In this document: in pieces, positions 24,407 through 63,950 of the stretch
How the letters are laid out: every line of letters starts with the position of its first letter
How positions within the stretch are numbered: the first letter of the stretch is position 1
Source of the DNA: Branchiostoma lanceolatum
Taxonomy: Eukaryota > Chordata > Leptocardii > Amphioxiformes > Branchiostomatidae
Reading direction: 5' to 3'
NCBI RefSeq assembly: GCF_035083965.1
Contig: NC_089727.1
Coordinates: 17,064,769-17,128,768, forward strand
Length of the DNA stretch: 64,000 bases
The notes under the pieces: generated by a model
Databases searched by the model: none
Told to the model about the DNA's origin: nothing
Seen by the model: the letters and a program-made list of their open reading frames with translations, nothing else
Translations under genes and position numbers: made by a program

Positions 24407-29170
<4,764 letters not shown>

Positions 29171-30803: not shown

Positions 30804-33800
30804 CTACGTCATGTCTGAAGTTTCATAGATGACGTTGTCGACCACTCCCCTTTCGGATTCCCCCGGTATTGTAGCATAGTCGTAATCATGAGAAGGTTGT
30901 GAAATTTCCCCTCTAGATATTTGTCTGAAAAAAAGAGAAAAACAATCATCAATTACACTTTCACACTCATGGTCTTAACTTCCTATACATACCCATGTTC
31001 ATTGATGTTACTAGTATTCATAATCTTAATTTTTCTCTTATCGCATAATACAAGATTTAAGACTGCCGTTTGCCATTCTCCTTATAGCAGAGCTGAATCC
31101 GCGATGTAGAAACTCCTTACAATATGCCGTTTGCAAGCCTGTCAATTTTTTTCCCTTTTACCCGCAATTTGACTTCGATTGGTGCAAGTGGGTAGTTAGC
31201 ATGTAACATGAGAAAACAGGTTTCTACCTTTTGTGAAAGATGTTACTAAAACATGCAGGACTTACCCGGAGTTGGCATAATTGTATGGTTCATACGGGTT
31301 GCTGTCCTCAGTGTTGTAAAGTTCACAGTCGGTGAACCCCTCGGCAGGCGCAGTCTGCTCGTTGGTCGCGGTTACATCTGAGTATTCTGGGTTACGGAAC
31401 CTCTGCTCAGGTGGATTGTTTTGAACGTGCGATGTACCTGCGTTGTCTGCTTTTCTGGGAATTTGAGAATAAGACATTTTCAAGACACGCAAAGATACAA
31501 TGTACCATTCACTACACATCAAGGTCAAAAGCAAGCCCTTACTCTATTGACAACTCTTACATAGCATGAGATAGAAATAGTCACTAAATCTAATGAGGTC
31601 TCCTTGCTTTATCACATAAAGGATGTTTTTATCAAGACAAAACCTCTTGATCACATAGTGTATTCTTCACTTGAAGTAATTATGCATTCTCCAAGTACTA
31701 TTGAAGCACATACCTTTTTCTAAGGAAGATAATCACGAACACTACCAGCGCGATCAGTACCACCGATATACCAGCCGCTATTCCCGCTATTGCCCCTGTA
31801 TACGTAGACAGTAGATCCTTGTCAGTGTGTTATGCATTAGGTATTGAAAGTGTAATTGTTAACTAGAGCGGTCGATTGCTTCTATAACATCTAATTATGC
31901 AAGTCATCCTACCGACATATTGTTCGATATATCTACAGTACTTATGATACACATGCATGTGTATGATGTTGCTTTAAACTCACCCACACCAAGGGGGCCT
32001 CTTTGATCTATTCGCTCTTCGTGTCCCCCATCAAGGACTGCTGTAGAAAAGACTGTTTCAAGTAGTTTTGTTAACAATTGACCAAGAAGGATCATCATAA
32101 GCCAGAAGTGAATCAGAAGAGTGTTTAACCATTCTGAGAAATCCGGACAAAATAAAAGACAAGTCCCAGCGACGACCAAAATATTGCAACGAGGATTTTG
32201 TTGACGTGTGTGCGAGCACAGAAAGTGATTGGTATAAGAAAGAATAAGTGAACAATGAAGGGACTGTTAACATCCAAGGTCAATTTTACGTGTCACAAGA
32301 TAGCTACATAAATTTATAGAACCAAAAACAGTCGTACCCGCTGTTGATAATGTTACAGTTGAGAAGGATCCCACGGTTTGAGAGGAAGTATAAACTGGAG
32401 CCGTACTTTGTAAAGCAGTAGATGTCGTCCGTACAACAGTTGTTGACTGGGTAGTAGACGCTGAGAGAAAAAATGACAATGATAATGAACTTTATTGCAT
32501 ATTCATGCCCAATATGGGCTCAATGCATTAGGTAACATAATTGAGGTATAAGAAAAGGTGCTATATTCCATTTAAATCTACGGATTTTCTTCTCTCCTCT
32601 TGAAACTTGTGTACACAAATTCACATAGTTTAAAAAAAGTCTAGGTTTGAAGTTAATAAAAGTCGAAAGTATCAGAATTCATCAAGCTGTAACTAAACCA
32701 AATTTGGTGGAGTCAACAACAATGAATACCTGTCACAAATTTTATGATTCATGTCTTTTCTTACCAATAAAGTCACAACCAAGGAGTTCCATCCGAAGAC
32801 CTGGCTCTCTCTGCCACCTCGTCGGGTACAGTCTGATTTTTTGTGCAACAATAGGGCTATAAAATTTATTGGTCTTTTGCCCACTTGGACCTGTATTTCC
32901 AGAAAAAGTCTGAAAATAGAATAAGAAAAACATTTCAACAAATTAAGATGGATGTCAAACGGATATATTGATCTTGAATGTCTTTGCTATGACAAATGCA
33001 CACCATGGTATCGATGCCCCTACGACCTGCGATGCGCATACATATGCGCGTGTCATCTTGTTTTGTCCCTTCCTAACCACGACTAAAACAACGTAACCCA
33101 TGGTCTTTGGATATAGAAAGCCTTTTTGTAAAGGGAAACAGTTCATTGTAATATCTTATCCGTGTCCTATGATCTATGATACATGTACACTACGATAACT
33201 AAACGTACCATTACATTTCCGGTCTGTGACGTGACGGCTTCCCATATCTCAAGGTTGTTTAAATACCGCACTTGGTATTGTTTCACCCAGTAATTCCAGT
33301 TCCCGTCGTACCCCTGAGTGATCACACCGCTGACTGTCTTTCGTTCTTTTAAATCCACCTGTATCCATGATCCCTCGAACGGCTCTGATGGAAACCAGGC
33401 GTAGTCTCCGTTCAACCGTGCATACGAAGGTAACCAGTCTTCATATGTAGTCGACGCAGTGACGTCATCGTCCTCTATAGTGCCAACCTCCATTCCAAGT
33501 GGGCAAACTTGACATGGACAGATTTGATGTTTGTAGATAAAGATATGCGTAGACTCTTAATGTAATGACAGCATCAATAAGATCAACCGTCTGATTACTT
33601 CGAAAAACTGTCCGATGGACTGAGTTCCAATCCCTAACAGAATAAGATTCTGGGAGCAAAATCAATTCAGCTCCTCGAGTTATGATGTGGAAAGAGTGTG
33701 CGCGGACATATTACAGAAATAGCTCTGGAATTTCTGCCAATAGGACGTATACTACACTGTTAGACTCGATTCAGGAATAGGAAATATGAATTATGAAATA

Positions 33801-35755
33801 AAGATTATGGAACTTGATGAAAGATGAATGAAGAAGTATCAAATAGGCATTATGGACTGTGAATTATGGAAGGTGAATTATGAAATATGAATTATGAAAC
33901 ATGAATTATGAAATTATGGATTCCATCATACCTCTTTCTTACCTTCTTACAAGAGAACCCCAAGCGGTAACCAAATTGTTTGTGCATGATATTCCCATTT
34001 TAATGTCAAGGGGAACACAAATCAAACTTAGGACGCAGCGAGGTCGCCAACGTGTCGCAGGTCCAATGAAATATGGGCTCAGTCAACCTACCTGGTGTGA
34101 AAGCGAAGGAACTGCCCCATGCGAATCCCCAACTGAAAAAAAGTCGCCAGAAGGCAACACGTTTATATCAAGAGAACATATCAATACATATACATGTACC
34201 ATGAATTTGATAAATTGAATCCTAAAAAGGATGATTGCAGTGCGACGTTTACAGATCCTTCTGTATCACTTACTTCCTCGTTTGAATGTCGTTCCGCTCG
34301 GATCCCACATACGAGTCCTGTCCGGGCCATCTGTAGACAGTCACCTGTCCACCATCGTCTGTTGTTTTACCGTCATGGATAGCAGCACGGCAAATACTCG
34401 AACCCTGTCAAAGAAAAGCAACTATATATTTTAGTACCCCGGCCCTCCTCCCTAAAGTGGACTTTTATGCACGATGTACTCTCAGCATATTTGGATTTGG
34501 TTTCTCGTTGTTTTAAATATTGTATACAACTGTGAACATGTAAGTGTGGCAAACCCCTTAAATTGTAATACTAGTAGTAAGTTTCGTGGTAGTCTTGCTT
34601 GTGTAACCGTCTTTACACTGATGTGTCATATCTGCAAATCTGACTAACGGTGTACTATAAGAGGGACGAACTTCACTAATTAATTCCAGAACTCTCGCTA
34701 ACTTCTAAGGGCAGGGTGTAATTCATCTTGCGGGTTTCTGTCTTAGAGATGACGGCCGTAACGAGGTTGTAATGATCGATGTTCCGACTAAGGGTTAGAT
34801 CCGGCGTCGCGACAGAGTCTAGATATAGCAGATAAGAGAAGGAATAAAGTGAACAGTGGCTCGGTTCTCAGCGATTCGACTTTCTGGACAAACAGAAGAC
34901 GGAGGTCTGAGAGCGAGCTGCCGGTGTGTGTGACGACAATGCCCTGTGTCCCGTGTGTGTTCCTTTAGTCCTGTAGGCAGTTCCTCGTGCGGCATTCCCA
35001 AAAGAACCGGGCCGAAACACCGCCCTTCTTACAAACACATGACGTTAATACTCACGTCTGTGTAGACTCCAGTCCCCCAGACAAATCTGCTTGCCGTAGT
35101 GCATCCAGCAGGACAGATGATGCTGTGAAATGGGAAAATACCAATAAAAAACGCTCTAGTAGTTTGAAAGATAATTCGATATTTGAAAAATGTTAGAAAT
35201 CATGCAGAAGATATAACTTTTCAAAATGATAATAATGTCTATATTTTGGGTTAACCATCTTGAAGCCTTCACATCTGTCTTACGTGAAGAAGTCGTCGTT
35301 GAAGTCCGTTGAGTCTGTAGAGCAGTCAACGGTATCTGGGAATTTAAGGCAAAATCACTCGATCAGCAACACTTTTCTCGCAATAACATGGCACCAAATT
35401 TAACTGCTACAAGGAAGTAGTGGGCGAGTTCAAATAGTGTGACCTCCATCGAGTCCGTATAGTAACTCGTGATATATATTGTACACTGGCCATCGAAAAT
35501 TCTAACTGGTCTACAGATGTATCAGACGGAAATGTTTGAAATGTAGTGTTCGTGCTTTTGGGTCACATTTAAACGCAACGTACGGCTATCTTGCTAACTT
35601 CAATGATTACAACTTCTGCCTTTGCAGTGCCGCACTAGCACTCTCAAACTCCATGGATGTAAAGTCTGCCACATACCGTCACTTTCCGCCACTGGAAGTA
35701 GAATGGGGATACACAAGTACACAAGACATCGGAATATCACACGGAACTTAGCCAT
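30804..35755 (-). CDS. Receptor B: LCCL + F5/8C (discoidin) type I membrane protein
   Basis: Twelve phase-consistent exons are 35677-35755, 35284-35335, 35056-35122, 34274-34404, 34092-34132, 33209-33507, 32765-32909, 32338-32460, 31984-32040, 31714-31795, 31266-31454 and 30804-30924. The order is signal peptide (FRVIFRCLVYLCIPILLPVA), LCCL (IICPAGC, WGTGVYTD, SSICRAAIHDG, WGFAWGSSFAF), F5/8C (CPLGMEVGTIEDDDVTAS ... GSWIQVDL ... ELLGCDF), Ser/Thr stalk, linker, membrane segment (GISVVLIALVVFVIIF), and a tail with NPEYSDV, DCELYNTED, YEPYNYAN and DYDYATI. The tail ends VVDNVIYETSDMT. F5/8C domains bind glycans or phospholipids and LCCL domains occur in LPS-binding and matrix proteins. A microbial- or matrix-sensing receptor is inferred. 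Confidence 0.85.
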
Positions 35756-35869
35756 GGTGGCTTTGCTATTATCAGAATCTTCACAAGAGTAAATTTCTAC
35801 CAAACCCTGCGACCCGCATGCAGAACTCTTCTTAACTTCCGGGTGCGTAGGCGTAGTTAAGGCGAGCCT

Positions 35870-35879
35870 GTGACGTCAC
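35870..35879. promoter_or_regulatory. CRE-like palindrome GTGACGTCAC upstream of receptor B
   Basis: It lies 115 bp before the start codon, within GTGACGTCACGTGG, so a CACGTG E-box overlaps its right end. Matches the sites before A and C. Confidence 0.6.
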
Positions 35880-41299: not shown

Positions 41300-44200
41300 T
41301 TATTGCCAATGCCAGGTTGTTGCGAGGCCACAGTAGAGGGTCTTTATGATGAGGGTAGCAACCCCAGCTGCTACTAAACCACCAAAGCTGGCGCCTATTC
41401 AGACATAAGAAACAATATGTGTTTAATGAAAACAATGACAATGACAATGACAATGAACTTTATTGCATATTCATGCCTAAAATTCAATCATCAGTTGAAA
41501 AATTTGAAACACTGACGTCATATAGTTCAATTATCAGGCGAGAAGGCGTCAGCACGGCATAGGCTGCAAACTGTGGAAATCCCAGAACTTTGACGGACTT
41601 ATGTGAAACAACTTGAAGTAAGAATTTGACTTTGGAATATATCAAGCATAGCATAGAAGGATTCTCAATTTTTTGTGTAGCTTTCCTTTAAAAGAACAAA
41701 GTTTGTTTTTTCAAAACTATAAATTTTCAGTCTGCAAATGAAATGCGTTTGTTTTAAAGGGGCTGTCGAACATTGATTCTTCTGCAACAAATAATGTCAC
41801 ATAAAAAAGTCTGTCTTCAACCATAGTCCCTTTTGTGTCCTGCTATGTTGTGTTGTTTTCGTTTTTGTGTTGTACTCGTGTTGTGCTCTGTTGTACTGAG
41901 GCATGGGCACTTCTCTTATAGCCTGTGTCCTAGGGTAAGACTTACCATTCTTGGAAGTCGAAGCTAGTGCTGAGGACGTAGGCTGTCTTGTTCTCATGTC
42001 AGCGTTGGACAACGAGGCCGTAATGTTGCTTCCAGCTGGTCCTATGGGTGCTTCGGAAAGAGGTAAAAACGTAGAGATCACCTCAGCTGGTCCTATGGGT
42101 GCTTTAGAAAGAAGTAAAAGCGTAGAGGTCACCTCAGCTGGTCCTATGGGTGCTTTAGAAAGAGGTAAAAGCGTAGAGGTCACCTCAGCTGGTCCTATGG
42201 GTGCTTCGGAAAGAGGTAAAAGTGTAGAGGTCACCACAGCTGGTCCTATTGGTGCTTCGGAAAGCTAGAGGTAAAAGCGTAGAGGTCACCACAGCTGGTC
42301 CTATTGGTGCTTCGGAAAGAGGTAAAAGCGTAGAGGTCACCTCAGCTGGCCCTATGGGTGCTTCGGAAAGAGGTAAAAGCGTAGAGGTCACCTCAGCTGG
42401 TCCCATGGGTGCTTTGGAAAGAGGTAAAAGCGTAGAGGTCACCTCAGCTGGTTCTATGGGTGCTTCGGAAAGAGGTGAAAGCGTAGAGGTCACGCCATCT
42501 GGTCCTATAGCTATAAAGGTGCTTCGGAAAGAGGTAAAAGCGTAGAGGTCACCTCAGCTGGTCCTATGAGTGCTTCGGATAGTGGCGAAAGCGTATTTCA
42601 ACATTACTCACCTACGGTACTAGTGTTTTCGCAAAATTGGACCAAATGTAAGAGCCCTAACATTTAATTGCACAGATTTATGTATAGGGTGCTTCGGAAA
42701 GAGGTAAAAGCGTAGATAGAAGGCACCTCAGCTGGTCCTATGGATGCTTCGGAGAGGTATTTCAACATCAGTCACCAACGGTGACTTTGTATTATGTTTT
42801 GTCAAAACCGAGCCAAATATAAGAGCGTTAAAAGTTTTGCACAAATATATGCGAAGACGCCAAAACGTCATCAACACCAACCCGAAACCGTGGCTTTGAT
42901 TCATTGAACCATACAAGCAATGGTTATATTCAAAACGCCTGTTACGAGTATATACCCAGCATCAAGCGATTGACCTAGACATTCATATTGCTCTACAATA
43001 TTAGGCTTTCTCTTACCGGTGACGTCACAGCCCAGGAGTTCCATCCGAAGAGCTGGAAGTCCGTGCCAAGTCGCTGGGTGGAGCTGTATCAGCCGTGTAA
43101 CGATGGGCCTGTCAAACATGTTCGTCTTCTGTCCAGCTGCGTCGGTATTCCCAGGAAACCTCTCTGGAGACTAGTTACATTAAAAAACAACACTTTAATT
43201 TACTTCGGTCAAGCTCCCACTAGGACCATACTCAAAAGCCTTTTCCACTCACTGTACGCTGGCCATTATCAGGGATTTAAACTTCGACTTTCATATTTGT
43301 CAGGCTGGCCTCAGCTCTTATGTTGTCTTGTTGTTGCGTGAAATGAAAAGTATTAGTCCTCATTTACATGCCGTTTGAAAAGTGACTAGATCTAAGCTTA
43401 TGTGGTGACATTATCTTTGTGTTCTCTCTATGCTTTCGCTTGCGACCAGGCCGTAACAATACATAGAATACATAGATTATCATAATCGTTTTCATTCAAC
43501 GTCAGTTCAATCGATTTGTGAGACTGGTCAGGAATACATGAGTATCTTCTTATGAAAAATGTAGTTCAACATTTTTTTATTATTTTTTTTATTTTTATCA
43601 AAAAAACACAGATTTATCCAGAATATATGTCAATGTTACAGAAAGGTATGTTGGTATCTTACAAGCACGATATGTTACAATGTTTGCACCAAAGATTATA
43701 TGTGTTACTGTACATATACTGGCAGGATAGTCCAAGATTAAACCACATATCAAATAAAGTTAATGCAATTCAACATACCGTTACGTTATACTGGTCTCTT
43801 ATGATATCCCAGCCCAAATTGGTGTCAAGGTAGAGAATGCGGTAACTTGTGATCCAAAACTTGTCTTGTGGGCCATCGTACCCCTGGGTGATGACACCTG
43901 TAACTGTTTTCGGTTCCCCCAGGTTCACCTGTATCCATGACCCCGTGGTCAGAGCCAGGTTCGGCAGCCAGGCAAAGTCTCCGTTTAACCGTGCGTACCA
44001 AGGCCACCACACGCCGAAAAACGTAGCTACAGACGAGGACGTGATGTCTAGGTCCTGTATGGTCCTGTCTTCCATTCCAAGTGCCCTAGGACAGACTAGA
44101 AATACACAGGTATTGGGTTGGGGTAGTGCTGCGTACCTAAACGTAACATCAGGTACAGGTACCGGTACAGAGGTTTAGGTACAGGTCCGGACCTGTACCT

Positions 44201-48306: not shown

Positions 48307-51300
48307 TTACACGGAGTCCTCATCACGTTGATCGTGAAACTCAAAGGTTGGTGCGGCGTTTGGCCCGATCTCGGGATCTCCATCCGGGTCCACTGGCGTC
48401 CGCACAAGCTTTTTACCCCAAGCAGTAAGTGATGACATCATGCCCATGCAGTCCTTGATCTTGTCCGGGGCTCCGTTGAAAGCTTCGTGGATGCACTTCA
48501 GCAGACCTGTGTAGATCTTGTTGAAGTTGTCAGAATATTTGCGAACTTGCGATCCTGGAGGGTATCTCTCGGTCTGTGGGTTGGAAACGGTCGGCCAGAC
48601 ACCATCTTCAAAGAAAGGCACAAGTTGGCCAACGAAGCTGAATGTCTTGGTACAGTTCATGCGTTTGTCACATGGAAAAAAGTTGTCAAAGCACTGTCCC
48701 AATTCTGTGGCATCTGGGTCTGTTTCCATAAGCTCCCGTCCGTGCACCACCTCAGCAAACTTGAAGAAATGTGAAATCTCGTCCGTTTCGTCAAACGGCT
48801 GGCAAGGGTCGCTCCCTTCACCCTCGAAAACGATGTCCAATATAGCAGCTACCGCGCTGGGAAGATCATGCACTGCAATCGGGGAACTGTCCTTGTTGCC
48901 AAACCATTGCTCACTGCTTATTTGCCTTGTTCTGTCACCCGTAAACAGATCATCGTCTGCCTTATTCTGTAGTATGATCATGGGGCAGACGATCAGATGG
49001 ATGTACATGCCACCGATGGTCTGAGGCCTTGTCGTTGTCTCAGAACACCGTCGGAAGATTTCCTCCCAAGTTTTCATATCGCCGTCATTGCTGTATTTCA
49101 TGATGCGGTTTCTATGAGTGCGGAGATACTGAGCCACACCACAACCCGCCATCTCACAGTTTGGCCTCTCTATCCCCTGGAAAACGGTTCGAATCTGGTT
49201 CAATGAGCATCTCGCGAGCTTTACCACAACACCAGGGTTAGCGCCCCCTGGAAGTGGTGCTGGGTATGACTGTACTACGGACGGATGGTTCAATAATGGC
49301 GCACCACCAATCGCGTTCAGAAGGTTGGAAACCAGAGTCATGTGTTTCATCTCATCGACAACGACAGTCTTGATCAAGGCCGCTACCTCTTTGTTGTCGC
49401 CATCTTTAATCGAGAACAGCGCACTCAGATAGGGAGGAATTGTGGCCAGTTCTATCTGAAGAGCTACCTGGAGGTTCCTTTTTAGTTCCGCTAAGGTATG
49501 GGTGGTCGTACCCAATAATGGAAGGTTTGAGGATGAGTCAAGGTTGTCTATCCATGACAAAATCATTTCTCGTTTTTTTGGAGAGAGATCTCTGGTCACC
49601 GGCATGTAGTTGGGATTCGTTTCAGGGAGAGTAAGAGTGTGTCTGAGCAATTTCTTTTTCCTAGTAACATCCTCGTAGCTTGCAAGGTTGATTATTGGCT
49701 TCATGACGGGATAGAGATTAGCGTACTGTTGGAATATTGGGTAGACATGTTCGTACCAGGTCACTTCACCGGGAGTGAAAGTGTACTCGGAATACAGATG
49801 AACTGAGATCATTAAGTCCGGAACCTTTAAGTCTATTCCATTGGCTCCCTTCTTGGCCATGATACCGTACGTGTATACCTGGCCATCTAGTTGCTGTTCC
49901 CTCCTAGGCTCCCCTGGATTGCTGGACCGGAATCTTATCGTAGAAATGCCGTTGTCATCAGAGGGTTTAATGCTGACAACATGTATTGCTGGATTCAAGT
50001 CGTCTTGGAGCGAGATGGGGCTGGTGAAAACCGATTTGGCAGATCTGCCAAACTGGAAAGTGCGAAAATGCATGTCCCATTCACTGTTGGGCTCCTTCCG
50101 CACAACACGATTGCCAATGGCCTCAACGAACAAGCCGTCGGGTCTTTCCTCCAACACCGCTTCGCATTGCGATGGGGTTCTTTGCTGTATTATTGCTAAT
50201 GGAGTATTCCCAATTGTTTCGATTGCTACGTGTTTAACGGAAAGCCTTATCATGCCTGCATTCCTCTGAAACCATGCATTTCCACCGACTCTGATTTCTC
50301 CGAGGTTGTATGCATCGTTGTCCAGAAGTTCGCATCTTTCCTTCGTTCCGTTGTATTGAAGAAGATAGAGGGGACCGCCTGATGGTTCGAGAAGATTACC
50401 TTTGATGTCGAACTTCACCCTGTTAGCAAAGTCAAGCACTACATTCTTCTTGTTGACGTCAACATAGAATGGAACGTGATTGCCATCACCTCTCCACAGC
50501 ATTCTTTTGTACGGGCCATAGGGAAGACGATGCCTTGACACCGCTGCATATATGGTCCCAACCACACGGCCATACGGGAAGTCTGGAGACTTGGAGTCCG
50601 TTACCATGTTGTAGACGTTGAGTTTGACGTGCAAGTTAAACCCATGCATGTGGCGGAGAGACATGACCTGCTGTATGAAGTTGGAATGTCTTGCTAGAGA
50701 CCCATCGATCCACTTCGTATTTTGCAAAGTCGACAACCAGACCGCAGAAAATCGCGTATCCGAAGTGCTGCAGTCCAGTTCTTCACAGGACTCGTGGATA
50801 TGGTTGAATGACCGTGGTACGAGGTCCCCTTTGAAGAACCCATCCACACCTACCACGAGGCCCCATATCTGACTTTGACCTTGGTTGAACGGATCCAGGT
50901 CGACCAGCTTGCCTGCAGTGGTGCTGTCCGAGCCTAGGTAAGAAAAGTAACTTCATTAATTAATGCATACGCATTTGTACCTATATGTAGCATGACTAAA
51001 TCGCGCTCCTAGCGGGAGGCCCGACGGTTACCGGGGGGTCATTAACCCCAGCCAGGCTATATTTGTACCTAACTTATCCCCCCCCCCCCGAAACTGAGGT
51101 CACCTGTGCACAGTTTTATAATGTACACTGTCATTTTGCCAAGTCCACGCACATGTGTAATTCTGAACATCCTAGCACATAGTCATCCTCCCAGCTGACC
51201 CGATATGTTCGGTTCGTTACCTCCCATTGCGGCCCTGCCCTTTCGAGCCCCGGAACACGCTTCTGGCGACGTCGCCTCCAAAACAGCTTCAGCCAATCAG

Positions 51301-52086
51301 AGGGTTTGCTAAAGCTCATCTCGAGCAAAGCCGCAAGGGACGCTGGGAAGCTATCAGCCAATCAGCTTACATCTTACATTGCTACTTTGGGTTCAGAACA
51401 AGATAACGAATCTTTGTGCCAAATAAGGCTAGCTCATTGATTATTATTGTATGACAGCCAACGAAAAGGTATGTCACCCCGTAAGGGGCGGTATAACCCC
51501 GTCGTAGCGAAAGCTCGTCGACTGATGATGATGATGATTGATTATTCATGAGCAACTAACGAGTGTTTGTGCCAAATAAGGCTTAATTATTTATGAGCAA
51601 CTGTCAGTGACGCCCCCAGAAGCCAAAACTGGCCTCAAGGACTGAGACCGAGAGGGTTTGCCGAAAATTTCCCGAGCGGGTTTCAGCGCTGATAAAGGAG
51701 GGTGGCACATACTAGTAGTAAGTAATAGTAATAGTCTTTGTTGCATATTCCTGCCCAGAGGAGCTAAATGCACAGATTACCACACGTGGTCTATAAGAAG
51801 CATAGTAGCAATGATAGACCACATCTGTGGAAATTTTAGTTAGAAATATTACCTATGATCGTTTGACCAATAATAGGGTCGTCTTGCAACTCTTGGACAC
51901 AGTGTCCGTCCGCGAGGCAGACTTGCGTCACTGTGCAGTCGACCAACCGGAAATCCCCAGTTCCTTTTGGGTTCCAGCCGGTTATCTTCAAGGGATCAAA
52001 CGTGCTGATGTTGAAATTTTCCGGGTAGTTGTTGATGGTTGGGACGTCAGCGAGAAATCTCCCAGCAAAGTTCAAACGAGGTATAG
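48307..52086 (-). CDS. VioB/RebD-like protein with ferritin-like di-metal domain
   Basis: Two exons: 51853-52086 (phase 1-1, after cctgtag) and 48307-50933 (2.6 kb, uninterrupted, stop at 48307). About 950 residues, close to Chromobacterium VioB (998). The start AIPRLNFAGRFLADVPTINN parallels the VioB start ILDFPRIHFRGWARVNAPTA. A large N-terminal region follows. Then comes a Pfam Ferritin-like (PF12902-type) domain with QIELATIPPYLSALFSI, VVVDEMKHMTLVSNLLNAIG and SYPAPLPGGANPG. Likely metal ligands are Glu in IELA (codon at 49452), Glu and His in DEMKH (49353, 49344) and the second E-x-x-H in DEISHFF (48780, 48771). In bacteria VioB, RebD and StaD couple two oxidised tryptophan units to make bisindoles; the substrate here is unknown. 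The long single exon is unlike its intron-rich neighbours. It may start at a local ATG (52207) or, more likely, be spliced to the LCCL exons upstream. Confidence 0.85.
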
Positions 52087-52560
52087 CTACAGGAATGATA
52101 CCACGTAAGTTATATGTAGGGTCATAAATGGTACAGTACACATTCTGTATCAGCATCAGTGTTTCATGCGTTACCTCCATTCCCAATTGACATACCCATA
52201 CCCACATGAGCACAAAATGTATATTCTTGGTCTAAAGATGGCCCCAAATCCCAAATTTAATCATTTTAAAGTGATTTATGCCAAAAGTGAGAATGAAGTC
52301 CTGGGGACATAAATCATAGGCACCCCATACCAAATTTCAGGTCAGTTGGGTTTCAATATGCAATACAAGGGCAAAGGAGCCCAAAATTTTTGGTCTATGA
52401 ACCCAACACACACCAAAATTCAGGGAACAAATACTTGACAATTCTCTTTGTTCTTTTTTAGAATCCGTTGGGGCAAAGTCACAGAGATCACAGGGCTGGG
52501 TAGGCAAGATAAGAAAATATAAAATACACAGCGCAATGCTGCACGACATAGACAAGTTAC

Positions 52561-55500
52561 CTGCTGATACGAAGGCAAAGGAACTTCTCCAACTTCCGGA
52601 ACTGAAAGAGATCAAGAATATGGGACGTTTATCATATTCTATAAAGATGAAAATCACGGCAAATATGACCTGAATACGATAAATAGAACCATAACACAAA
52701 AATGTTTACACCATTCGTTGAAAGATCCTTCTGTGTCTCTCACCGAAGTGATTGAATGCCGTTCAGCTTGGAAGCCTGGTACGAGTCCTGTCCGGACCAT
52801 CTGTAGACAGTCACCTGTCCACCGGCGTCCGTGATCCTACCGTCATGGATGGCAGCACGGCAAATACTCGAGCTCTGTAAAAGAATACCATCTACTTCAG
52901 TACCCATTTCCAAAAATGGACTTCTGTCAATATACATAAGGCATGTCAGTATGTTGAGCAAAAATCCGCTGTGATTTATGAATGGTTAATTCGGATGTGC
53001 AGAAACCGAGAAGTACTCACGCTCGTGTAGACTCCAGTCCCAGAGATAGTTGCTTGCCAAATTTCATAGCATCCAGCCGGACAGGTTTCGCTGTAAAATT
53101 GAAATATGTTCATGCAAAAGTCTAGTAGCTTTACAAATGATTTGAAAGAAATGTTAGATATGGGAAAAGGCGTCACCTTTCTATAAAGACGACGTATTTT
53201 TTTCAGTTAATAGTCAACTCTTACGTGAAATTGTCGCCGTTGAAGTTCGCGAAGACAGCAAAGCATATCTGAGTATCTGGAAAATTGATGCAAAATCTCT
53301 CATCAGCAATACATTTCCTGCATTAACGTGGCACCCAGGTATGGTCCAAGACACTGCTAAAAGGAAGTAACGGTTCATAGTCCGTATATAGGTAACTGAA
53401 CAAGTTATCTGCCCCTTAGTTGATACAATGAATGAATGAATGATTTTATTGCACAACGATTGGATCAGTGACAATGAATGTCAACTTACAGACACCATAT
53501 AGGTAACAATCTAGTTCTATATAAGAATATTTCTAGTTACTGTAAGACTATATCCAGTGTGATCTACGGCAATTGCAACACGGAACTAATACAGGCTTAG
53601 AGTTGCGTGTTTCTAGGCTAACTATATCGGTAATAATGTATAGCAATTTACAGATAACGTAATAACAATCTAGTTCTATCTAAGAGTATTTCTGATTACC
53701 ATAAAGTGCAATCTACGTACGGTAATTACTACATGGAACTATAGCCAATTCAGACAATGTGGAGGTGTGATCATGTTCCTCAAAGATGAAGTTCATTGAT
53801 TGTCGCTTTGGAAATTGAGAGGCAGACTCATACCCTGTCTCTGGGCCCCATGTTGAAAGTTTGTACAGTAGTAGGGCAGTAACCACCAAGTCACATTTTG
53901 TTTTCAAATTTTTCAGTTGTTTGGCTGTTGACAACTCTCAATCAGAACTCATCATGGCCAGGTGTACTACTGTGATGTGAAATTGCAATTGTTCAATGTT
54001 TCCTTGTTTTTACTACTTTTATACCAGGTACCCCACAATACCATTCCAGTGAAAACCACAAGGTCTACACACATAAAGCTCAACATAAAGAGCTGAAATG
54101 TCCCTACATACACCAAATCCTTTCATTTGACAGAAAACATTGTCCAGTGCTACATCCAAGGCATATCTAGCAATATCCCATCTTGTTTGGTCCCTGTAGA
54201 CTCTACAGAGGACCATTTCTGTGTGGGGGCGGGGTTACGACCAAACAATGATTAACTTTTTTATAATTGAATGGTTCCAGCTAAAACACACGGTGTCTAT
54301 AAAAGAATCTTCCCATTGAGCTTCTAACCTGTGACGTCACAACCCAGGAGTTCCAGTCTGAGAGCGGCGCCATTTTGGAACCAGGTCCAGGGCAGCACTC
54401 TGATGAACCGGGCGTGTATAGCAGGGACGAACACGTTCTCTTTCACAATATCAGCGCCACGGTTACCCTCAAACACCTGGGAGGGAATAGATACACATGC
54501 ACATTCTTGTTCTCTGTATGTGCCACTATTAGGTACAATATGCTATTAAAGGAGCATTCCACTCCAGAAGCTGGTATCATTTTCTGATAGATTACATTTT
54601 TCAGGATACAAATGCACCCGACTTTTGGCTAAATTACCTCAGCTGTCTTTCGACAATAATCCTTCTCTAAATCCATTTACCCCCATACGGACCCGCTATG
54701 TACTTTCATGGCCATTCTCAGGTATAATTTATCGCTAACGGTAGACGCGATAAGCTTAACAAAAGCAGTTGAGTGACTATACAGAAAGGTACACAAAAAG
54801 TTTGAAGACTATCGCGTCTGGGGATACTGAGATTTTGGTACTTTTGTAAGAAATGTTGAACTCTGGCATTGTGGGAAGGGTCCTCTGGGGAATTCAAGAA
54901 CTCGATTGCTAAAATGTTCAACTTATGGTAATTTTGACAAAACAAACTGGATAAACACCCCCGTACAGACAATGCAGGTGCACATCAAAGTCGCTACAAG
55001 TATGACACATACAGGATATAGAGCAGGTATTCTAAGCTTACCACATCTTCATCAGACGGAGCGAAAGTCGTCCACGTTGTCCCGTCGTCCGAAAACTGAA
55101 CCTTAAAGGACGTGACGTAGTAGCTGTACGTGTAGTGATGACCTTGACTTCGAACACCGGTGATTCGTTTCCTCTCCCGTAAATCAACCTGAAGCCACTG
55201 GTTCCGCCCGGGATCTTCGTAGTTCTGCGGGTACCAGGCGTGTTTGTTGTGCAGTCTTCCCAGATACGGGCGCCAGCAGACGGATGGCCCACAGTGGGTA
55301 GAGGATCCCGTGATTTGGTCGTCGCAGATAGTTTTTGATTCCATGCCAAACGGAGAAGTACATGCTGAAAAGAAACATGATCATATCAGTTAATCATCTT
55401 CTATAACACGTTTTTTTAAAGCATGATAGTTTTATCTTTGCAAAGAAAGCTGTTGCAGAATTTCCTCAAACATTATGTAAATGAAGCCCTGATTTGCATG

Positions 55501-57724
55501 ATTTATGTCTACTAATGTTCACCTTTACTTGACTTTTGAATGCTGCTAGAATAAACTTCCCATCATTGCAGACTGTGGAATATTTTTATTTTTCATTAAT
55601 CATGCAAATTAAAGTAGGAATTGCATAGTTAAAATATATCGATATTCCTCTCTTTCTCAGTTACCTATGTCCCGTGTTTGAGAGTCCTTTCATGGAATGG
55701 AGCGGATCTATAAACTTTTCGAGCTGATTATGTGAAATAAGCCCTGATTTGCATAATAAACACCTGCTTGTGAAAATAATCAATTAAACTATCTACATAT
55801 GAAAAAAAAAACTCTTATTGGGTTGAGAAACAACTGGCCCCTGCAGTTCCAAAAAGCCGCTAGAGGGCCCTAACCTACAACACTTACTCTCAGCCACAAG
55901 GGCTAGCTTTCACTTAAAATCACGACCATAGTATGTCCAGAACATGAGATTTCATCACCGGAAGTTGTGCCGCAGTACCTTAAAAAGCCGCTAGGTGATC
56001 AATAATCGAACTTGACCTTCGTTTTGTTGCCCTTACCCACCTACCAAATATCTTAAGGATATATCCGCGACTTCTCGAGATATGCTGTTGACAGACAGAC
56101 CGTGAGACAGACAGACGGACGGACGGACAGACACACAAACGGCACCAAAAACACAACATTCTTGGCGAAGGTAATTAGTATGGGCGTATGCAACCATTTC
56201 TGTGTGGCCTGAGCAAAGGGAACAAGAGTTAAGAACTCAACGGAGGAAGCCTCGAATGTCAACATAAAAGGTATGGTAGGTATATAAGAAGAAGCATTCT
56301 TCCTACGAGAGAAGCTTTTGACTAAGCCTCGCTATTTGGCGGATATCCAAAAACCTGACACAAACGCTACCATGACTTTGATACCTCTATCTTCTACCCC
56401 ACAAAATTTTTTTTTCCGGTAGTTTCACATTGACTTCATATGTAAATTAGTTAATGTCCGTCCATGCTTTCTTGGAAGGCAGTATATCAAAAGTATACAT
56501 GTGTGACGTAACAAGGAAGTCACATATGTCCTTTTACTTTCGCAGTGACGTCATTGGAAATCGGTACTTTTCCAGAATGTGTCCCTCTATCGTATAAGAC
56601 GTATATCATTTTAGTTATATTTGATCGCTAACCCTTTGAAACAGTCTTTGTGTTAAGTCTCCTCTACTTAGAAAAAAGAATTAAGTTCAAATGGAGGTTG
56701 CTTCATGCTGATATAAGAAGTTTGCAATCAAGTATGTTTTGCCGCCGAAAATGAAACCCTTCAGTAACGACTGAGAAATCCCCACAGTTTCGATGATCTA
56801 ATTCCAAGGCAATAGGAACTATGGCGCTTTCATTTTCGCGATTAGCTTCACACTATCTGAACAGTAAAAAAAAAAAAAAACTACACAAGGTTGATACTTT
56901 CTTGTGCCATAAAAAACACACATAAGCAATCATAGCCGTGGCAGTTCAAAAGGGTATACTTTTCCAATGTTAGTTAAATTGTCCACACTGTAAACAAAGG
57001 CTGCAAGGGTATTTATTCATTTATTTATTTAGATCTACCACATTTGTGGAAGGATTGACATAACAGGTGACTATCACCTTTTCAAGATGTCAACCCAGAC
57101 CAGACTGTAAGGTTTGGACCATCGCACACCGGGGCATGCCCCTACTCTTTTTTGAAAGTTCTGGTGGGTTCTTTTACGTGCGCGGGGTGTGGCTCTCCCA
57201 AACACGGGACCTCCATTTAACGTCCTATCTGAAGGACGTCCCTAACGGAAGCTAGGTACTCATTTACACCTGAGTAGAGTGAAGAAATTTGTGTTAAGTC
57301 CCAAGGGTACAACGTCCGGGCGCATAAAAACATAAAATGTTTGACAAGACGTGTGAATAAGTGAATGAATACATGTAGATACATAACAGAAGCCTAGTTG
57401 GAACGTGAGTCCAAAACTCCCCTCCCAGAGGACGAAAAGCAAAAAAGGACACATATCTAAAAACGTTTAGTTGCTGTAATGTAATCTTGGGTAGCTAGCA
57501 TGATTTTCTCGTTGATATCAGAAGAACAAAGCAAACTACCATGTAGAATTAAGAGCTGTTTACCGTTGACAGAGAGGGTGTTAAAATTAATTGTGTGTCC
57601 GAGGATCCCAGAAAGCTTGCCGAAGAGAACTGAACGTTGGAAGGGCAGTGTAATAAGTAATGGACCTACCTGACGCAGTGCTCAGGAAGACAACGCCCAT
57701 TAGAAGTGCTCTTGTTCCCAGCAT
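52561..57724 (-). CDS. Signal peptide + F5/8C + LCCL exons, probably the 5' part of the VioB-like gene
   Basis: Exons are 57670-57724 (signal peptide LGTRALLMGVVFLSTASG), 55042-55364 and 54329-54476 (F5/8C: CTSPFGMESKTICDDQITGS, QWLQVDLRERKRITGV, LRLELLGCDV), 53225-53276, 53021-53090, 52744-52874 and 52561-52601 (LCCL: CPAGC, SGTGVYTS, SSICRAAIHDGRITDAGG, SGSWRSSFAFVSAG). Each module is phase 1-1. No second signal peptide, stalk, membrane exon or stop is found before the VioB-like exon, which also opens in phase 1. Joining all nine exons gives 3681 nt, exactly divisible by three (1226 residues). The LCCL exon sizes (52, 70, 131, 41) nearly equal those of receptor B (52, 67, 131, 41). Alternatively this is a separate secreted protein whose end I failed to see. 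Confidence 0.7.
53420..53960 (-). repeat. Reverse-oriented retroelement 3' region with internal duplication
   Basis: TGAATGAATGAATGA followed by TTTTATTGCACAA is the form of a minus-strand LINE/SINE 3' end. The phrase GTAACAATCTAGTTCTAT(A/C)TAAGA occurs twice (about 53502 and 53660). Non-coding; intron between the F5/8C and LCCL modules. Confidence 0.45.
55835..56170 (-). repeat. Dispersed repeat family R, copy 3
   Basis: CCCCTGCAGTTCCAAAAAGCC, CGCTAGAGGGCCC, ACCATAGTATGTCCAGAAC, CTCGAGATATGCTG and an ACAGACAGAC run end near CTTGGCGAAGG. Same family as 38580-39010 and 63345-63655. It lies between the signal peptide and F5/8C exons. Confidence 0.65.
57110..57330 (-). mobile_element. Partial second-type SINE
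   Basis: CCCCTACTCTTTTTTGAAAG, GGTGTGGCTCTCCCAAACAC and CCTCCATTTAACGTCC match the body of 29780-30175. The tRNA-like head is missing. Lies about 350 bp from the signal-peptide exon. Confidence 0.6.
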
Positions 57725-58812: not shown

Positions 58813-61800
58813 TCAGTTCATAGCAGATGTCTCATATATGACATTTTCTACCAATCTATTGTCCTCCTCCCTAGAGCCGTTGTCTCCCGTTACTGCTCGA
58901 GCGGTGCTGTGTCCTGTCGGCGTGCTGCAAAGAAAATATGAGAACACTATGATTTCTTCAGATCGTCAATTGTTCATGTCTGTATGCAAATTCAATTTTT
59001 AAGTATCATTTGTTTGAAATTCCAGTTAGAGACGCAAGGGTCCATACTTTCCATCAACATCAAGTATGGCCATGCGTAGACCGTCTCTCCAAAGATGCAC
59101 ATTATTACATTTGACAGGGCATAACGTACTTGATAAAATTTCAATGCTTGGTTTGATCGTGACCAGTACCTTCAACAGAAAACGTAGCATGTACCTTGCG
59201 GTTTGTATTGACGCAAACTACGGACTAACCTTGCTTTCGTGTAAAGGTCGTTGTCCACGAAGCCCGACGTATCACGATCGTGGTCCCTCTCAGAGGAAGG
59301 TGCAGCCTGACCCGAACTGTACTCCGTGTTCACAAACTCGTGCCCTCTAGCGGCTGACGAAGGTTCTGCATCAGATCCTGAAGAAGATCGCCTGGAGAAA
59401 CAGAAAAAGGAGGATTATGGAAATTTAACTTCTATTGACAACCCTTCCATAGTAAATCAATGAACTAGACTTAGCATTTCATTTCAAATATAGGCTATGA
59501 TGTTCTACTTTCTTTTTTCAGATAAGATTTCATTCGTCACTAGCTTTGCACGTCGCATCAATGGGGTCGCATTGTGTGAACTTCTGTACTAAACCGGTAA
59601 TCTGAATGGTAATGAAAAGTATGTCGCCGTTATCGAGCTTACCTTCTTCTTATCACAATCCCAATTGCCACCACAGCCACTACCACCACACCTCCGCTGA
59701 CGGCTATGGCGACTATGACACCTACGATAGGTGGAAACGGAACAATGAATGACCACAGTACACTTCTGTGTATGTCTTCTACTAGTATACTTCTTTCAAC
59801 ATTATGCAGTGAAAGATCTTTCCGTTGTCGCCTAATGCCATCAAAATCATGTTCTCATCAAATCTACATTAACAATAGAAAAATGATGAAGAAACAATGG
59901 CAAGGGTGCATCAGGCCTATAGATTGGGAGACTTATAATAAAAGTAGTAAAAGTGAGTGTAAAATGTCAATATGTCATGACTTTCATAATCACCTGTTGA
60001 GAAAGGTCCGCGGCCGACTTGTCCCCCTCCCTGAGTATCTGGACCATAATTAGAAAGTAAAGAACACGGAATATAGTTAGAAAAAAACACACACATAGAC
60101 TTATGATCCTATCAATTGATGATTTCATAGATGAACATGTAACGTAAGTTCATGATGGATTTCGTAATATACATTATACATATCAATAATGATAACAACA
60201 ACCTTTATTGTACCCTATCGGGCTATGTACAGGCATACAGATACAAAAGTCGTGGTAAATACATATATTGATACTAACAGGACTTCTAATATCAATCTAA
60301 AACAATTGTTTTAAAGCAAATGTATAGGTTCAGCTTCTTCTCTTCTATTTGTGATGTTAAAATATAACAATATAGACTGGGGAAGGCAAAGCATGGGGGT
60401 CGCTATAGGGGATGTTACATGACCGTGTGCTCATGTCAGTAAATGTGAGAAGTTTCAATTGGTCTTTTCGTCGAGAACATGTCATATCATACTACAGCCC
60501 CATCATTAGGTGGTCTTAAAGTCTTCGTTGAAACACTTTTATCGTGAGCCCCGTATAACATATTTAACAACTGTAGATCAAAAAGTACAATGCATCAATT
60601 GTGATGGTTTTGAAATACTGCCTATTTTTCTTAGCTCCAACTGCCTTGGATATAAAAATGCCCCGTCCATTGTTTTGAATAAGGCCATGTTGATTTTGAT
60701 TATATGGATGACATCCGCGCGCGCATCAATTATCGTCCGTCTCCAAAAAAAAGTTTTCGACCATACTTTAAATCGTACACAGTAACTGAAAAATGAACAA
60801 ATATATCCGTAAATTACAAAAAGAATATTGCAAAACGTGTACTAATGTCATGGAAGTGTATTACAAAGTTAAAGAAGATGTAAAATAACAAGAATGAAGA
60901 CTATATTTTCGGTATGTTATAGTCGGTGTTTAAATCATTTGTTCAACCTTCCTAACTACTTGGATGTCATGAAGGCACATTTTCTTGCTAAACGTTTGAT
61001 TTGATTCGCACGTATGCGTCTGTCTTTTACCTGGAACACTTTGCGATGCGTTGTGAGGCACTTGGGTGGATGTTGTAGATAATAAAGGGTGAATACCTGA
61101 TGTTGTAGGTGTCGTTTGTTGAGGGAGTGGTGTTGTGGGATGTAACGTTGTGGTCTCTGTTAAAAACATACATTGCAGCAAAATCAAGTGAATCTGGATA
61201 TCTGGTTGATTTTCTGGATTGTATTCCTACCAGAATGAAGGAAATAATCCATACACTACTTTCTCTGGGCTGCAAAAATGTCACTTATTTAGTCATCCAG
61301 TCTGCGAAATGGGAGGGAATTTTATAAAATGGGGATGACTGTAAGTTACTGAAATGAAAGAAATGGCGGTGGAGAAATGCTTATTTGACCAAATAACAGA
61401 AAGTTTCTTTGAGAGTTCTTGCCCGTAGGCTAATTGCAAATACATATAACATGAAACGAACGGACAGACAGTGAACAATAGAGTATTCTACAACTCTAGT
61501 TTAACTGCTGACACTAAATTCTAACTTGTTCTAACTTGATAATGATCACGTTTTTAAATGGAATATCTCCAGCATTCAACAACACATTGTTTGTATGTAT
61601 GTATGTATGTATGTACGTATGTATGTATGTATGTATGTAAAGATGCAGTAGACCTTACAAATGTCTCTGTGCTTTTGTTGTGTCAATAAAGATTGTTGCT
61701 GTATGGAAGCATCTTCCCATGGTGCAACACACCTGTGACGTCACACCCCAGGAGTTCCAGTCTGACAGCGGCGCCATTTTGGAACCAGGTCCAGGGCACC

Positions 61801-63950
61801 ACTCTGAGGTACCGGGCGTGTATGGCAGGGACGAACACATTCTCCTTAACAGTATCAGCGTCACAATTACCCTCAAACACCTATGAAGGGATAGATACAA
61901 ATGTACATGTTCATATTTTGTTTTTGTTATGTTTATTATCTTGAGGGGATAGATATAAATGTACATGTTCATATTTTGTTTTTGTTATGTTTATTATCTT
62001 GAGGGGATAGATATAAATGTACATGTTCATATTTTGTTTTTGTTATGTTTATTATCTTGAGGGGATAGATACAAATGTACATCTTCATATATTTTGTTTT
62101 TGTTATGTTTATTATCTTGAGGGGATAGATACAAATGTACATCTTCATATTTTGTTTTTGTTATGTTTATTATCTTGAGGGGATAGATACAAATGTACAT
62201 CTTCATATTTTGTTTTTGTTATGTTTATTATCTTGAGGGGATAGATACAAATGTACATCTTCATATTTTGTTTTTGTTATGTTTATTATCTTGAGGGGAT
62301 AGATACTAATGTACATCTTCATACTTTGTTTTTGTTAAGTTTATTATCTTGAGGGGATAGAAAGCAATCTACATCTTCATATTTTGTTATGTTTATCATC
62401 TTGAGGGGATAAGTACAAATGTACTTCTATATATTTTGCTTTTGTTATGTTTATTATCTTGAGGGGATATGTACAAATGTACATCTTCATGTTTTATTTT
62501 TGTTATGTCTATCATGTCTATTTTGTACCTTGTATGTGGATGCCACATTGTCGTTGTCTATGTCTATCATGTATCAGCATTTAAAAAAAAAAAGACATCA
62601 TATTTGCAATGTCCACAAAGGAGAAATATCATAGCCTGCACGTGTTAAAATAAGATTGCGTCGAGAAATTGGTCGTCTTGTTATGCGTAGCTATATAACC
62701 CATCAACAAATGAAGTTCTGAAGCGAAAGTTCTGAAAACATATAGCCACTAGCAGATGACTGTTCTCTTTCCTCCCTAGTACATGCGAATGCTTATCATG
62801 TAAAAGAAGCTTTTGATAAGACATTAACTCGAAATTTCCATCTATATCTAACAGATACATGTACAGGATGTAAAGCAGAATAACTTTCTATTGGTATTCT
62901 AAGCTTACCACATTTCCATCAGACGGAGCGAACGTCGTCCACGTTGTTCCGTTGTCCGAAAACTGAACCTTAAACGACGTGACGTAGTAGCTGTACGTGT
63001 ACCGATGACCTTGACTTCGAACACCGGTGATTCGCTTCGTCTCCCGTAAGTCAACCTGAAGCCACTGGTTCCGCCCGGGATCTCCGTAGTTCTGCGGATA
63101 CCAGGCGTGTTTGTTGTGCAGTCTTCCCAGATACGGGCGCCAGCAGCCAGACGTGCCGCAGTAGAAGGAGGATCCCGTGATTTGGTCGTCACGGATGGTT
63201 TTTGATTCCATGCCAAGTGGAGAAGTACATGCTGAGAATGGAAACATGAATACATGTCATCCATTACGGAATGTAGGAAATCTGCCTCTCTCTTCAGACG
63301 AAAACATTTGTCTATACTTACGTTTCGAAAAAATATAATAACGCCCCTGCAGTTCCAGAACAAGCTGCTAGGGGGCCCAAACCTACACCACTTCTTCATT
63401 ACATCACAAGCTATCTGCCACCAAAAAATCAAGACCATAGCATGTCCAGGTCAAAAGATAAAAAAAACAAGTTCTGCTGCAGTACCAAGGTCACATACCA
63501 GGGAGCCCAAAATCTCTACTACACCCGCCCACATACCAAATATCATTGTAATCCATCAAGAGGTTCTTGAGTTATGCTGCTTACAGAAATCCGGAAACAC
63601 ACACACACAGACACACAGACACATCCAAAACTATATCTCCATTTTTCATGGAGACTACGCACACCCCATGTTTAGATTAGTAAAAGTAACGTTAAGGTAG
63701 TTAGTGATATGAATCTTGAACATAAGGAAGTAATAGTGCTGCAAGCACTTCCGTATACTATAGCAACCGATATTTTGGGACGGAAATGTTTGGTTAGGTT
63801 TCTCAGGCCGTGGAAGTAATGTCAACAGTCGTATAACCACAATTCTAAAACTTAGAAGGAAGACCAATGGACCAACTCACCTTCTTCGGCAGAAGACGCA
63901 ATCGAAATAAGTGTAAGGAGGGGAAACATCAACGTTTTCTTCAAGAACAT
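58813..63950 (-). CDS. Receptor F: F5/8C type I membrane protein with tyrosine tail
   Basis: Exons are 63881-63950 (signal peptide FLKKTLMFPLLTLISIASS), 62909-63231 and 61733-61880 (F5/8C: CTSPLGMESKTIRDDQITGS, QWLQVDLRETKRITGVRSQG, LRLELLGCDV), 61031-61156 (Thr/Pro stalk), 59994-60038, 59643-59721 (membrane segment GVIVAIAVSGGVVVVAVVAI), 59230-59391 and 58813-58924. All junctions are phase-consistent. The tail contains FVNTEYSSG and VDNDLYTKA and ends LVENVIYETSAMN, the motif shared with receptors A and B. Its F5/8C exons equal in length (323 and 148 nt) and nearly equal in sequence those at 55042-55364 and 54329-54476. Only 50 bp of upstream sequence is inside the window. Confidence 0.85.
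60180..60330 (-). repeat. Reverse-oriented retroelement 3' end
   Basis: AATGATAACAACAACC followed by TTTATTGTACCCTATCGGGC has the form of a LINE/SINE tail on the minus strand, in an intron of receptor F. No coding content. Confidence 0.4.
61590..61640. repeat. (TATG)n microsatellite
   Basis: About a dozen TGTA/TATG units with one imperfect unit, 3' of the second F5/8C exon of receptor F. Confidence 0.9.
61883..62480. repeat. Minisatellite, about ten units of 60 bp
   Basis: The unit contains GGGGATAGATACAAATGTAC, CATCTTCATATTTTG and TTTTTGTTATGTTTATTATC. It abuts the acceptor of the second F5/8C exon of receptor F. The first unit includes the intron end, so the array grew from the exon edge. 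Confidence 0.9.
63345..63655 (-). repeat. Dispersed repeat family R, copy 4
   Basis: The most complete copy: CCCCTGCAGTTCCAGAACAA at one side; CTGCTGCAGTACCAAGG, CCCACATACCAAATATCA and TCAAGAGGTTCTTGAGTTA inside; ending CACAGACACA...ATCTCCATTTTTCATGGA. Intron 1 of receptor F. Confidence 0.7.

What the first reader, a model, noticed from the sequence alone, without database searches (positions are those of the whole stretch)
48307..57724. A predicted secreted chimera: signal peptide, F5/8C, LCCL and a bacterial-type VioB/RebD-like enzyme
Seen: nine exons whose lengths and phases agree end to end. A signal peptide exists only at the F5/8C end. No stop, membrane exon or second start lies between the LCCL and enzyme exons. 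The joined model is 1226 codons. Known: F5/8C and LCCL are animal adhesion modules; VioB/RebD/StaD are bacterial bisindole-forming oxidases. Inference: the animal modules would deliver an oxidase to the cell surface, matrix or microbes. I know of no described protein with this order of domains.
Basis: partly seen in the sequence, partly recalled or inferred. Interest (0 to 1): 0.95.

Follow-up and report, generated by a model that had tools for sequence, protein, structure and literature searches.

The report
Secreted animal chimera with bacterial-type oxidase
One animal gene appears to join a secretion signal and two surface-binding modules to a large enzyme whose only relatives found here are bacterial, so an animal may be sending a microbial-style oxidase outside its cells; no transcript was available to prove the join.

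Summary
The nine-exon, 1226-codon model is in the sequence. Pfam finds F5/8C (4e-22), LCCL (5e-23) and PF12902 Ferritin-like (2e-50) in that order. Exon and domain boundaries coincide, and the introns between modules are phase 1. The enzyme is full-length: exon 8 starts at the equivalent of bacterial residue 5, with a Met exactly four residues earlier in 71 of 75 bacterial ORFs, none of the 71 signal-like. It is not VioB (23.8 bits against a cut-off of 1250; 21-23% identity). The nearest relatives found are uncharacterised bacterial proteins, single-chain or two adjacent genes, some beside ebo or lodA-like genes. Five invariant candidate metal-site residues are kept. Doubts: no transcripts; exon 8 has the weakest acceptor; a second signal-like ORF lies in the LCCL-enzyme intron, though without a good donor; lancelet gene models include false fusions (PMC4967905); structure prediction was never available. 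Chimera about 0.7; its chemistry is inference. If real: new variant of a known kind.

The parts
57670..57724 (-). E1: signal-peptide exon, MLGTRALLMGVVFLSTAS, ends in phase 1
   Evidence: donor 99.7th percentile; composite reached in 2 of 268 tiled windows, which include this gene
55042..55364 (-). E2: F5/8C domain, first part (aa 19-126)
   Evidence: copy at 63 kb, dN about 0.06 and dS 0.19-0.22
54329..54476 (-). E3: F5/8C domain, second part (aa 127-175), ends in phase 1
53225..53276 (-). E4: LCCL domain, first exon
53021..53090 (-). E5: LCCL domain
52744..52874 (-). E6: LCCL domain
   Evidence: paralogue at 34.4 kb, 80% DNA identity
52561..52601 (-). E7: end of LCCL, ends in phase 1 at a strong donor
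   Evidence: 99.25th percentile; similar exon with a phase-1 donor near 34.1 kb, read by eye in the sequence
52087..52560 (-). Intron 7, the contested join between LCCL and enzyme
   Evidence: 474 nt; no AATAAA, one ATTAAA at 52261; signal-like ORF from ATG 52549 without a good phase-1 donor
51853..52086 (-). E8: start of the enzyme (aa 274-351), equals bacterial residue 5 onward
48307..50933 (-). E9: rest of the enzyme, with PF12902 at aa 839-1081 and the stop codon at its end

Best explanation
One gene encodes a secreted protein: signal peptide, F5/8C, LCCL, then a full-length single-chain enzyme of the PF12902 superfamily (an N-terminal domain of about 550 aa plus a ferritin-like domain of about 390 aa). 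SHOWN in the sequence: exon and domain anatomy, an open frame, no internal stop, no membrane segment, a full-length enzyme, and all five invariant candidate metal ligands (E846, E879, H882, E1057, H1073). INFERRED: the enzyme came from bacteria long ago and entered the secretory pathway by joining, at its original start, phase-1 modules of a local F5/8C-LCCL gene family. F5/8C and LCCL hold the protein on glycan- or lipid-bearing surfaces. There the ferritin-like centre, probably a metal site using O2 or H2O2 (heme is not excluded), oxidises or couples a small amino-acid-derived (indole or phenol type) substrate. The most likely role is surface-targeted oxidative chemistry in defence or in matrix or pigment formation.
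For: Continuous nine-exon model, 1226 codons. Domains above cut-off and in order. E8 starts at the equivalent of bacterial residue 5: alignment offset 5 in 50 of 75 N-type ORFs, and a Met exactly 4 residues before that point in 71 of 75. None of those 71 is signal-like, so secretion would need an upstream exon. 52086 is the only phase-compatible AG in the open stretch; the 49-codon extension above it has no coding signal (31st percentile of 803 overlapping null frames) while E8 has (97.8th). The E7 donor is strong and recurs at a paralogous LCCL exon near 34.1 kb. The join is 474 nt with no AATAAA. The F5/8C exons and their 63-kb copy differ with dN/dS about 0.3, so at least one copy is constrained. 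Five residues invariant in 91 of 91 and 22 of 22 bacterial sequences. 18 Cys in the enzyme part (18.9 per 1000 aa) against a bacterial mean of 6.2.
Against: No transcript or protein evidence. The E8 acceptor is the weakest site (88th percentile). Phase agreement at the join alone has a one-in-three chance. A signal-like ORF lies in intron 7. Cys content of 1.9% is, from general knowledge, ordinary for animal proteins, so it does not prove secretion; N-glycosylation sequons are not enriched (3 in 953 aa; bacterial mean 5.6 per 1000). Published lancelet models include false fusions of adjacent genes (PMC4967905, outline and section 12 seen). No structure model was obtained. Substrate and cofactor untested; the cited work on StaD calls it a hemoprotein (a reference title seen).
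Confidence: 0.68

Rival explanations
1. Two adjacent genes on the same strand: a short secreted F5/8C-LCCL protein (or receptor remnant), and an enzyme gene with its own start in the 474-nt gap. The joined model is a false fusion.
For: Lancelet gene models include such false fusions (PMC4967905). ATG 52549 opens a signal-like peptide, and in-frame ATGs 52207, 52180 and 52156 precede E8. E7 read-through stays open to a stop at 52339. The E8 acceptor is weak.
Against: No phase-1 donor after 52549 scores above -2.2; 17 of 268 tiled windows (whole 64 kb, both strands, this gene included) look as good. The extension above E8 has no coding signal. The E7 donor is strong and recurs in a paralogue. 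No AATAAA in the gap. The gap (474 nt) is smaller than the roughly 1.4 kb between the tail-like ORF of the upstream receptor-like gene (ends 59172) and E1.
Confidence: 0.24
2. Real chimera, but the enzyme part is catalytically dead and serves as a structural or binding domain.
For: Long branch (1.62 and 1.96 changes per column); position 847 is Leu where most bacteria sampled have His.
Against: All five invariant candidate ligands kept. Leu at 847 occurs in 7 of 22 bacterial hits from protein-level searches and is seen in VioB and 3hl1. E9 alone keeps an open frame over its whole length.
Confidence: 0.12
3. E7 skips the enzyme exons and splices to F5/8C exons at 44 kb; the enzyme is a nested separate gene.
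For: F5/8C exons lie at 44.1 and 43.1 kb on the same strand, and phase-1 modules would be compatible (their phases there were not worked out).
Against: Requires skipping the adjacent in-phase E8, and an enzyme start for which no good candidate was found.
Confidence: 0.04

Closest known systems
Uncharacterised bacterial single-chain N+PF12902 proteins (e.g. L011 Roseivirga, L017 Myxococcaceae, L019 Solibacteraceae)
   Same: Same full-length enzyme layout; 41% identity over one BLAST segment, 38% over 843 columns at best; same invariant residues
   Different: No signal-like N-terminus in the ORFs tested, single bacterial ORFs without introns; whether any carries other modules was not searched
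Bacterial two-gene 'hypothetical protein + ferritin-like protein' modules (L001-L007)
   Same: N gene aligns within aa 276-844, F gene within aa 827-1222, 26-34% identity
   Different: Two separate genes; of the seven, three lie beside EboA/EboC/EboE-type genes (L001, L004, L007), one beside TatD and 3-dehydroquinate synthase (L003), and L004 also near a LodA/GoxA-type gene
VioB, iminophenyl-pyruvate dimer synthase (TIGR04492)
   Same: Similar start (PRLHFRG against PRLNFAG) and LELS / EEMxH / QGEG / HF motifs
   Different: 21-23% identity; 23.8 bits against a cut-off of 1250
3hl1, 'Ferritin like protein' in the PDB
   Same: Best match by sequence among solved structures (E 7.8e-9; 8.3e-22 with alignment A1)
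   Different: 317 aa; matches only the ferritin-like part; function not stated in the listing
DCBLD-type receptors (architecture recalled: CUB-LCCL-F5/8C-membrane segment)
   Same: LCCL and F5/8C modules; a neighbour in this window looks LCCL-F5/8C
   Different: No CUB, no membrane segment, order reversed, enzyme where stalk and tail would be

Membership tests
PF12902 Ferritin-like | Score above the Pfam gathering cut-off (22.3 bits) | tested here: met
   171.9 bits, profile 1-220 of 221
PF12902 / N+F superfamily | Invariant E, ExxH, GEG and H residues | tested here: met
   E846, E879, H882, G1056-E1057-G1058, H1073; 91 of 91 and 22 of 22 bacterial sequences
VioB (TIGR04492) | Score above NCBIfam equivalog cut-off 1250 | tested here: not met
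   23.8 bits, E 9e-6 for E9; 8 of 145 genomes in the family of G001 pass the same cut-off
VioB / RebD / StaD | Oxidative dimerisation of an indole-pyruvate-derived imine | not testable with these tools
   Needs an enzyme assay
RebD / StaD | Closer sequence kinship to RebD/StaD than to other PF12902 proteins | not tested
   No named RebD or StaD sequence was fetched
F5/8C | Pfam cut-off 28.2 bits | tested here: met
   79.1 bits
LCCL | Pfam cut-off 22.6 bits | tested here: met
   81.6 bits
DCBLD-type receptor (features recalled) | CUB domain and membrane segment | tested here: not met
   No CUB; the most hydrophobic 21-aa stretch of the model overlaps the signal peptide, 1.47
Secreted protein | N-terminal signal peptide | tested here: inconclusive
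   E1 peptide is signal-like by hydropathy and a -3,-1 rule; no dedicated predictor, no protein data

The most novel reading that the evidence does not exclude
An animal has turned a bacterial secondary-metabolism oxidase into a secreted, lectin-guided effector: F5/8C and LCCL dock it on microbes or matrix, and the enzyme makes an oxidatively coupled indole or phenol product (toxic or cross-linking) right there, as an opsonin that does chemistry.
Probability: 0.12. Interest if true: 0.92.

Novelty: new variant of a known kind. Interest (0 to 1): 0.66.

Why it matters
If the join is real, it is a clear case of a bacterial enzyme lineage taken into an animal secretory pathway by shuffling of phase-1 modules, with the junction at the enzyme's own original start. 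It would also give a first handle on a large uncharacterised enzyme family that in some bacteria sits beside ebo and lodA-like genes, and would make targeted extracellular oxidation by an acquired bacterial enzyme directly testable in an animal.

Tried and rejected
Own-genome search: none held. Single-protein scans of genome contigs and viral contigs found no relatives. An alignment query then gave 80 bacterial loci but nothing in viral contigs; phages: no match. The idea that a helix-C Glu (TIGE) had been lost and the enzyme was dead was rejected: that column is variable in bacteria (E 27, Q 26, W 17 of 91). The idea that Leu847 is an odd loss was rejected: the first set was selected with an EH pattern, and in the 22 sequences position 847 is H 13, L 7, other 2 (at least three of those 22 repeat genes of the first set). 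Cys enrichment was first taken as strong evidence of secretion, then downgraded because about 2% Cys is ordinary in animals (general knowledge). The upstream F5/8C copy at 63 kb as part of the same gene was judged unlikely: it is followed by a Ser/Thr-rich ORF, a membrane-like segment near 59.7 kb and a tail-like ORF. LodA- or ebo-type genes in the window: 16 reference proteins gave no hit better than E 0.037. Papers: nine searches listed nothing whose title or abstract start describes this architecture; this covers one open-access library, and most listed papers were not opened. One listed paper assigns PF12902 to Schistosoma haematobium vesicle proteins (PMC7563238, one passage seen), so PF12902 in an animal has been reported; whether that label is right was not followed up. 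The sequence collections used hold prokaryotic, viral, phage and plasmid records, so other lancelets, other animals and the species of the window could not be checked.
Full report
What is there. Pfam finds, above cut-off and in order, F5/8C (aa 49-169, 4.2e-22), LCCL (aa 172-268, 4.8e-23) and PF12902 Ferritin-like (aa 839-1081, 2.4e-50). Modules and exons coincide: signal peptide E1, F5/8C E2-E3 (aa 19-175), LCCL E4-E7 (aa 176-273), enzyme E8-E9 (aa 274-1226). The introns after E1, E3, E7 and E8 are all phase 1, the pattern expected of class 1-1 module shuffling. No membrane segment lies in the model.

The enzyme. Among plasmid records 166 matched E9; in 8 one place covers at least 80% of the query, and all eight are listed as two features, 'hypothetical protein' and 'ferritin-like protein'. 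I fetched seven of the eight; their two genes align within aa 276-844 and 827-1222 of the window protein at 26-34% identity. Of these 80 plus ten plasmid loci, 17 carry both halves in one ORF (one, L012, is a contig-edge fragment), 57 have the N half as an adjacent gene, 15 show no N half and one (L022) only a distant one. In trees of 76 rows (with three VioB) and 73 rows (without), 56 pairs form one side of a branch (support 98-99) and 16 single chains another (80-83), with the window between them on a long branch. L012, L022 and L043 were left out beforehand and loci without an N half were not placed. The highest identity was 38% over 843 columns; one BLAST segment reached 41%, to the Roseivirga genome. 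In protein searches of three groups of genomes, 15 of 396, 18 of 195 and 10 of 395 had a match. The kinship is clear but distant: together with the introns and animal modules this speaks against recent contamination, and the donor cannot be named.

VioB or not. The VioB model of NCBIfam gives 23.8 bits against a cut-off of 1250. Against eight fetched VioB proteins the main matches were 21-23% identical, best E 6e-9. Motifs recur in VioB (LELS, EEMxH, QGEG, HF). It is a member of the wider superfamily, not a VioB. RebD and StaD were not compared; that RebO and RebD give chromopyrrolic acid and that StaD was described as a hemoprotein acting on indole-pyruvate rests on passages and reference titles seen in PMC10784701.

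Is the enzyme intact? Among 91 bacterial F sequences E846, E879, H882, G1056-E1057-G1058 and H1073 are invariant, and the window has them. That set was selected with a pattern containing EH, so its 90 of 91 His at position 847 is biased. In 22 sequences from protein-level searches (30 loci, of which 22 frames gave an F match) the five residues are again invariant and position 847 is H 13, L 7, other 2 (at least three of the 22 repeat earlier genes). The window's Leu is ordinary. Calling these residues metal ligands is inference from the ferritin-like fold.

Is the join real? For: E8 begins at the residue that corresponds to bacterial residue 5. A Met stands exactly four residues before it in 71 of 75 N-type ORFs, and none of those 71 is signal-like. 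The in-frame stretch above E8 has no coding signal (31st percentile of 803 overlapping open frames drawn from five stretches that I took as non-coding) while E8 has (97.8th), and 52086 is the only phase-compatible AG there. The E7 donor is at the 99.25th percentile, and a similar LCCL exon near 34.1 kb ends in a phase-1 donor too (sequence, read by eye), so E7 does not look like a last exon. The gap is 474 nt without AATAAA (one ATTAAA at 52261); after the enzyme stop the first AATAAA is at 47519. Against: the E8 acceptor is the weakest site (88th percentile). ATG 52549 in the gap opens a signal-like peptide, though with no phase-1 donor above -2.2; 17 of 268 tiled windows of 474 nt reach its composite score and 2 of 268 that of E1 (the windows cover nearly the whole 64 kb on both strands, this gene included). 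No cDNA could be consulted. Banyai and Patthy show that lancelet gene models include false fusions of neighbours, one exposed by ESTs that define the downstream gene's own signal peptide (PMC4967905, outline and section 12).

Secretion. The enzyme part has 18 Cys in 953 aa (18.9 per 1000) against a mean of 6.2 (sd 2.65, maximum 13.0) in 74 bacterial sets. Of the 15 Cys in E9, 13 fall in columns where Cys is not among the six commonest states of the 52 bacterial rows; at the other two 3 and 16 rows have Cys (where printed positions are one too low). At least four of the 74 sets (L022, L043, L053, L060) have a distant N half or an over-long frame. The excess fits life in an oxidising compartment, but animal proteins in general carry about 2% Cys (general knowledge), so it is not proof. 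Sequons are few (3). A structure model could have tested Cys pairing; the predictor was busy at every attempt.

Local origin of the modules. The window holds more F5/8C and LCCL exons on the same strand: F5/8C at 63.2/61.8 kb (86% aa identity to E2/E3, followed by a Ser/Thr-rich ORF, a membrane-like segment near 59.7 kb and a tail-like ORF), at 44.1/43.1 kb and at 33.5/32.9 kb; LCCL at 34.4 kb (80% DNA identity to E6) and 27.3 kb. No second copy of the enzyme was found in the window. E2-E3 against the 63-kb copy gives dN about 0.06 and dS 0.19-0.22, so at least one of the copies is under constraint. The neighbours look, by eye, like membrane receptors; this gene has an enzyme where they have stalk, membrane segment and tail.

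What it probably does. In bacteria at least 19 of 80 loci have three or more of six ebo-type genes within 6 kb, 3 of 80 a LodA-like and 4 of 80 a LodB-like gene (some loci are cut by contig ends). For five fungal lodA-like genes a ferritin-like gene was reported close by (PMC4417212, passages). The ebo cluster is needed to move a scytonemin intermediate to the periplasm for oxidative dimerisation (PMC6282210, abstract and part 1 of 2 of the discussion). These neighbours suggest oxidative work on amino-acid-derived small molecules. Carried outside the cell and held by F5/8C and LCCL, the most likely use is surface-targeted oxidation or coupling for defence or for matrix or pigment. All of this paragraph beyond the counts is inference.

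Verdict. Observation confirmed; interpretation partly supported. Chimera about 0.7, secreted and active about 0.55, any particular chemistry low. Nine paper searches listed no description of this architecture, within one open-access library and by title and abstract start only.

Noticed in passing
59172-63256, - strand: A neighbouring receptor-like gene: F5/8C exons about 86% identical to E2/E3, Ser/Thr-rich ORF near 61.1 kb, strongly hydrophobic segment near 59.7 kb, tail-like ORF with tyrosine motifs near 59.3 kb (by eye); its first exon was not found and may lie outside the window.
   Followed up: partly
31262-35875, - strand: Another gene that looks, by eye, like signal peptide, LCCL, F5/8C and a tyrosine-rich tail ORF; its LCCL exon is 80% identical in DNA to E6.
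   Followed up: partly
41797-44174, - strand: F5/8C exons followed by a repetitive Ser/Thr/Pro-rich ORF (STLLPLSEAPIGPAEV repeats), possibly a mucin-like stalk.
   Followed up: no
25916-27345, - strand: LCCL exon (52% to E6) and a Sushi domain (PF00084, 3.8e-9).
   Followed up: no
18595-18897, + strand: Cyclin N-terminal domain (PF00134, 2.7e-8).
   Followed up: no
L004, 1231-4292: In Mycetohabitans a LodA/GoxA-type oxidase and a gene annotated 'tryptophan 7-halogenase' lie in the same stretch as the two-gene module and ebo-type genes.
   Followed up: partly
L001:7722-9482, L002:7746-9578, L003:7698-9683, L004:7734-9632: The N-type half has no Pfam family above cut-off in the four examined: a large domain apparently without a Pfam entry.
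   Followed up: no
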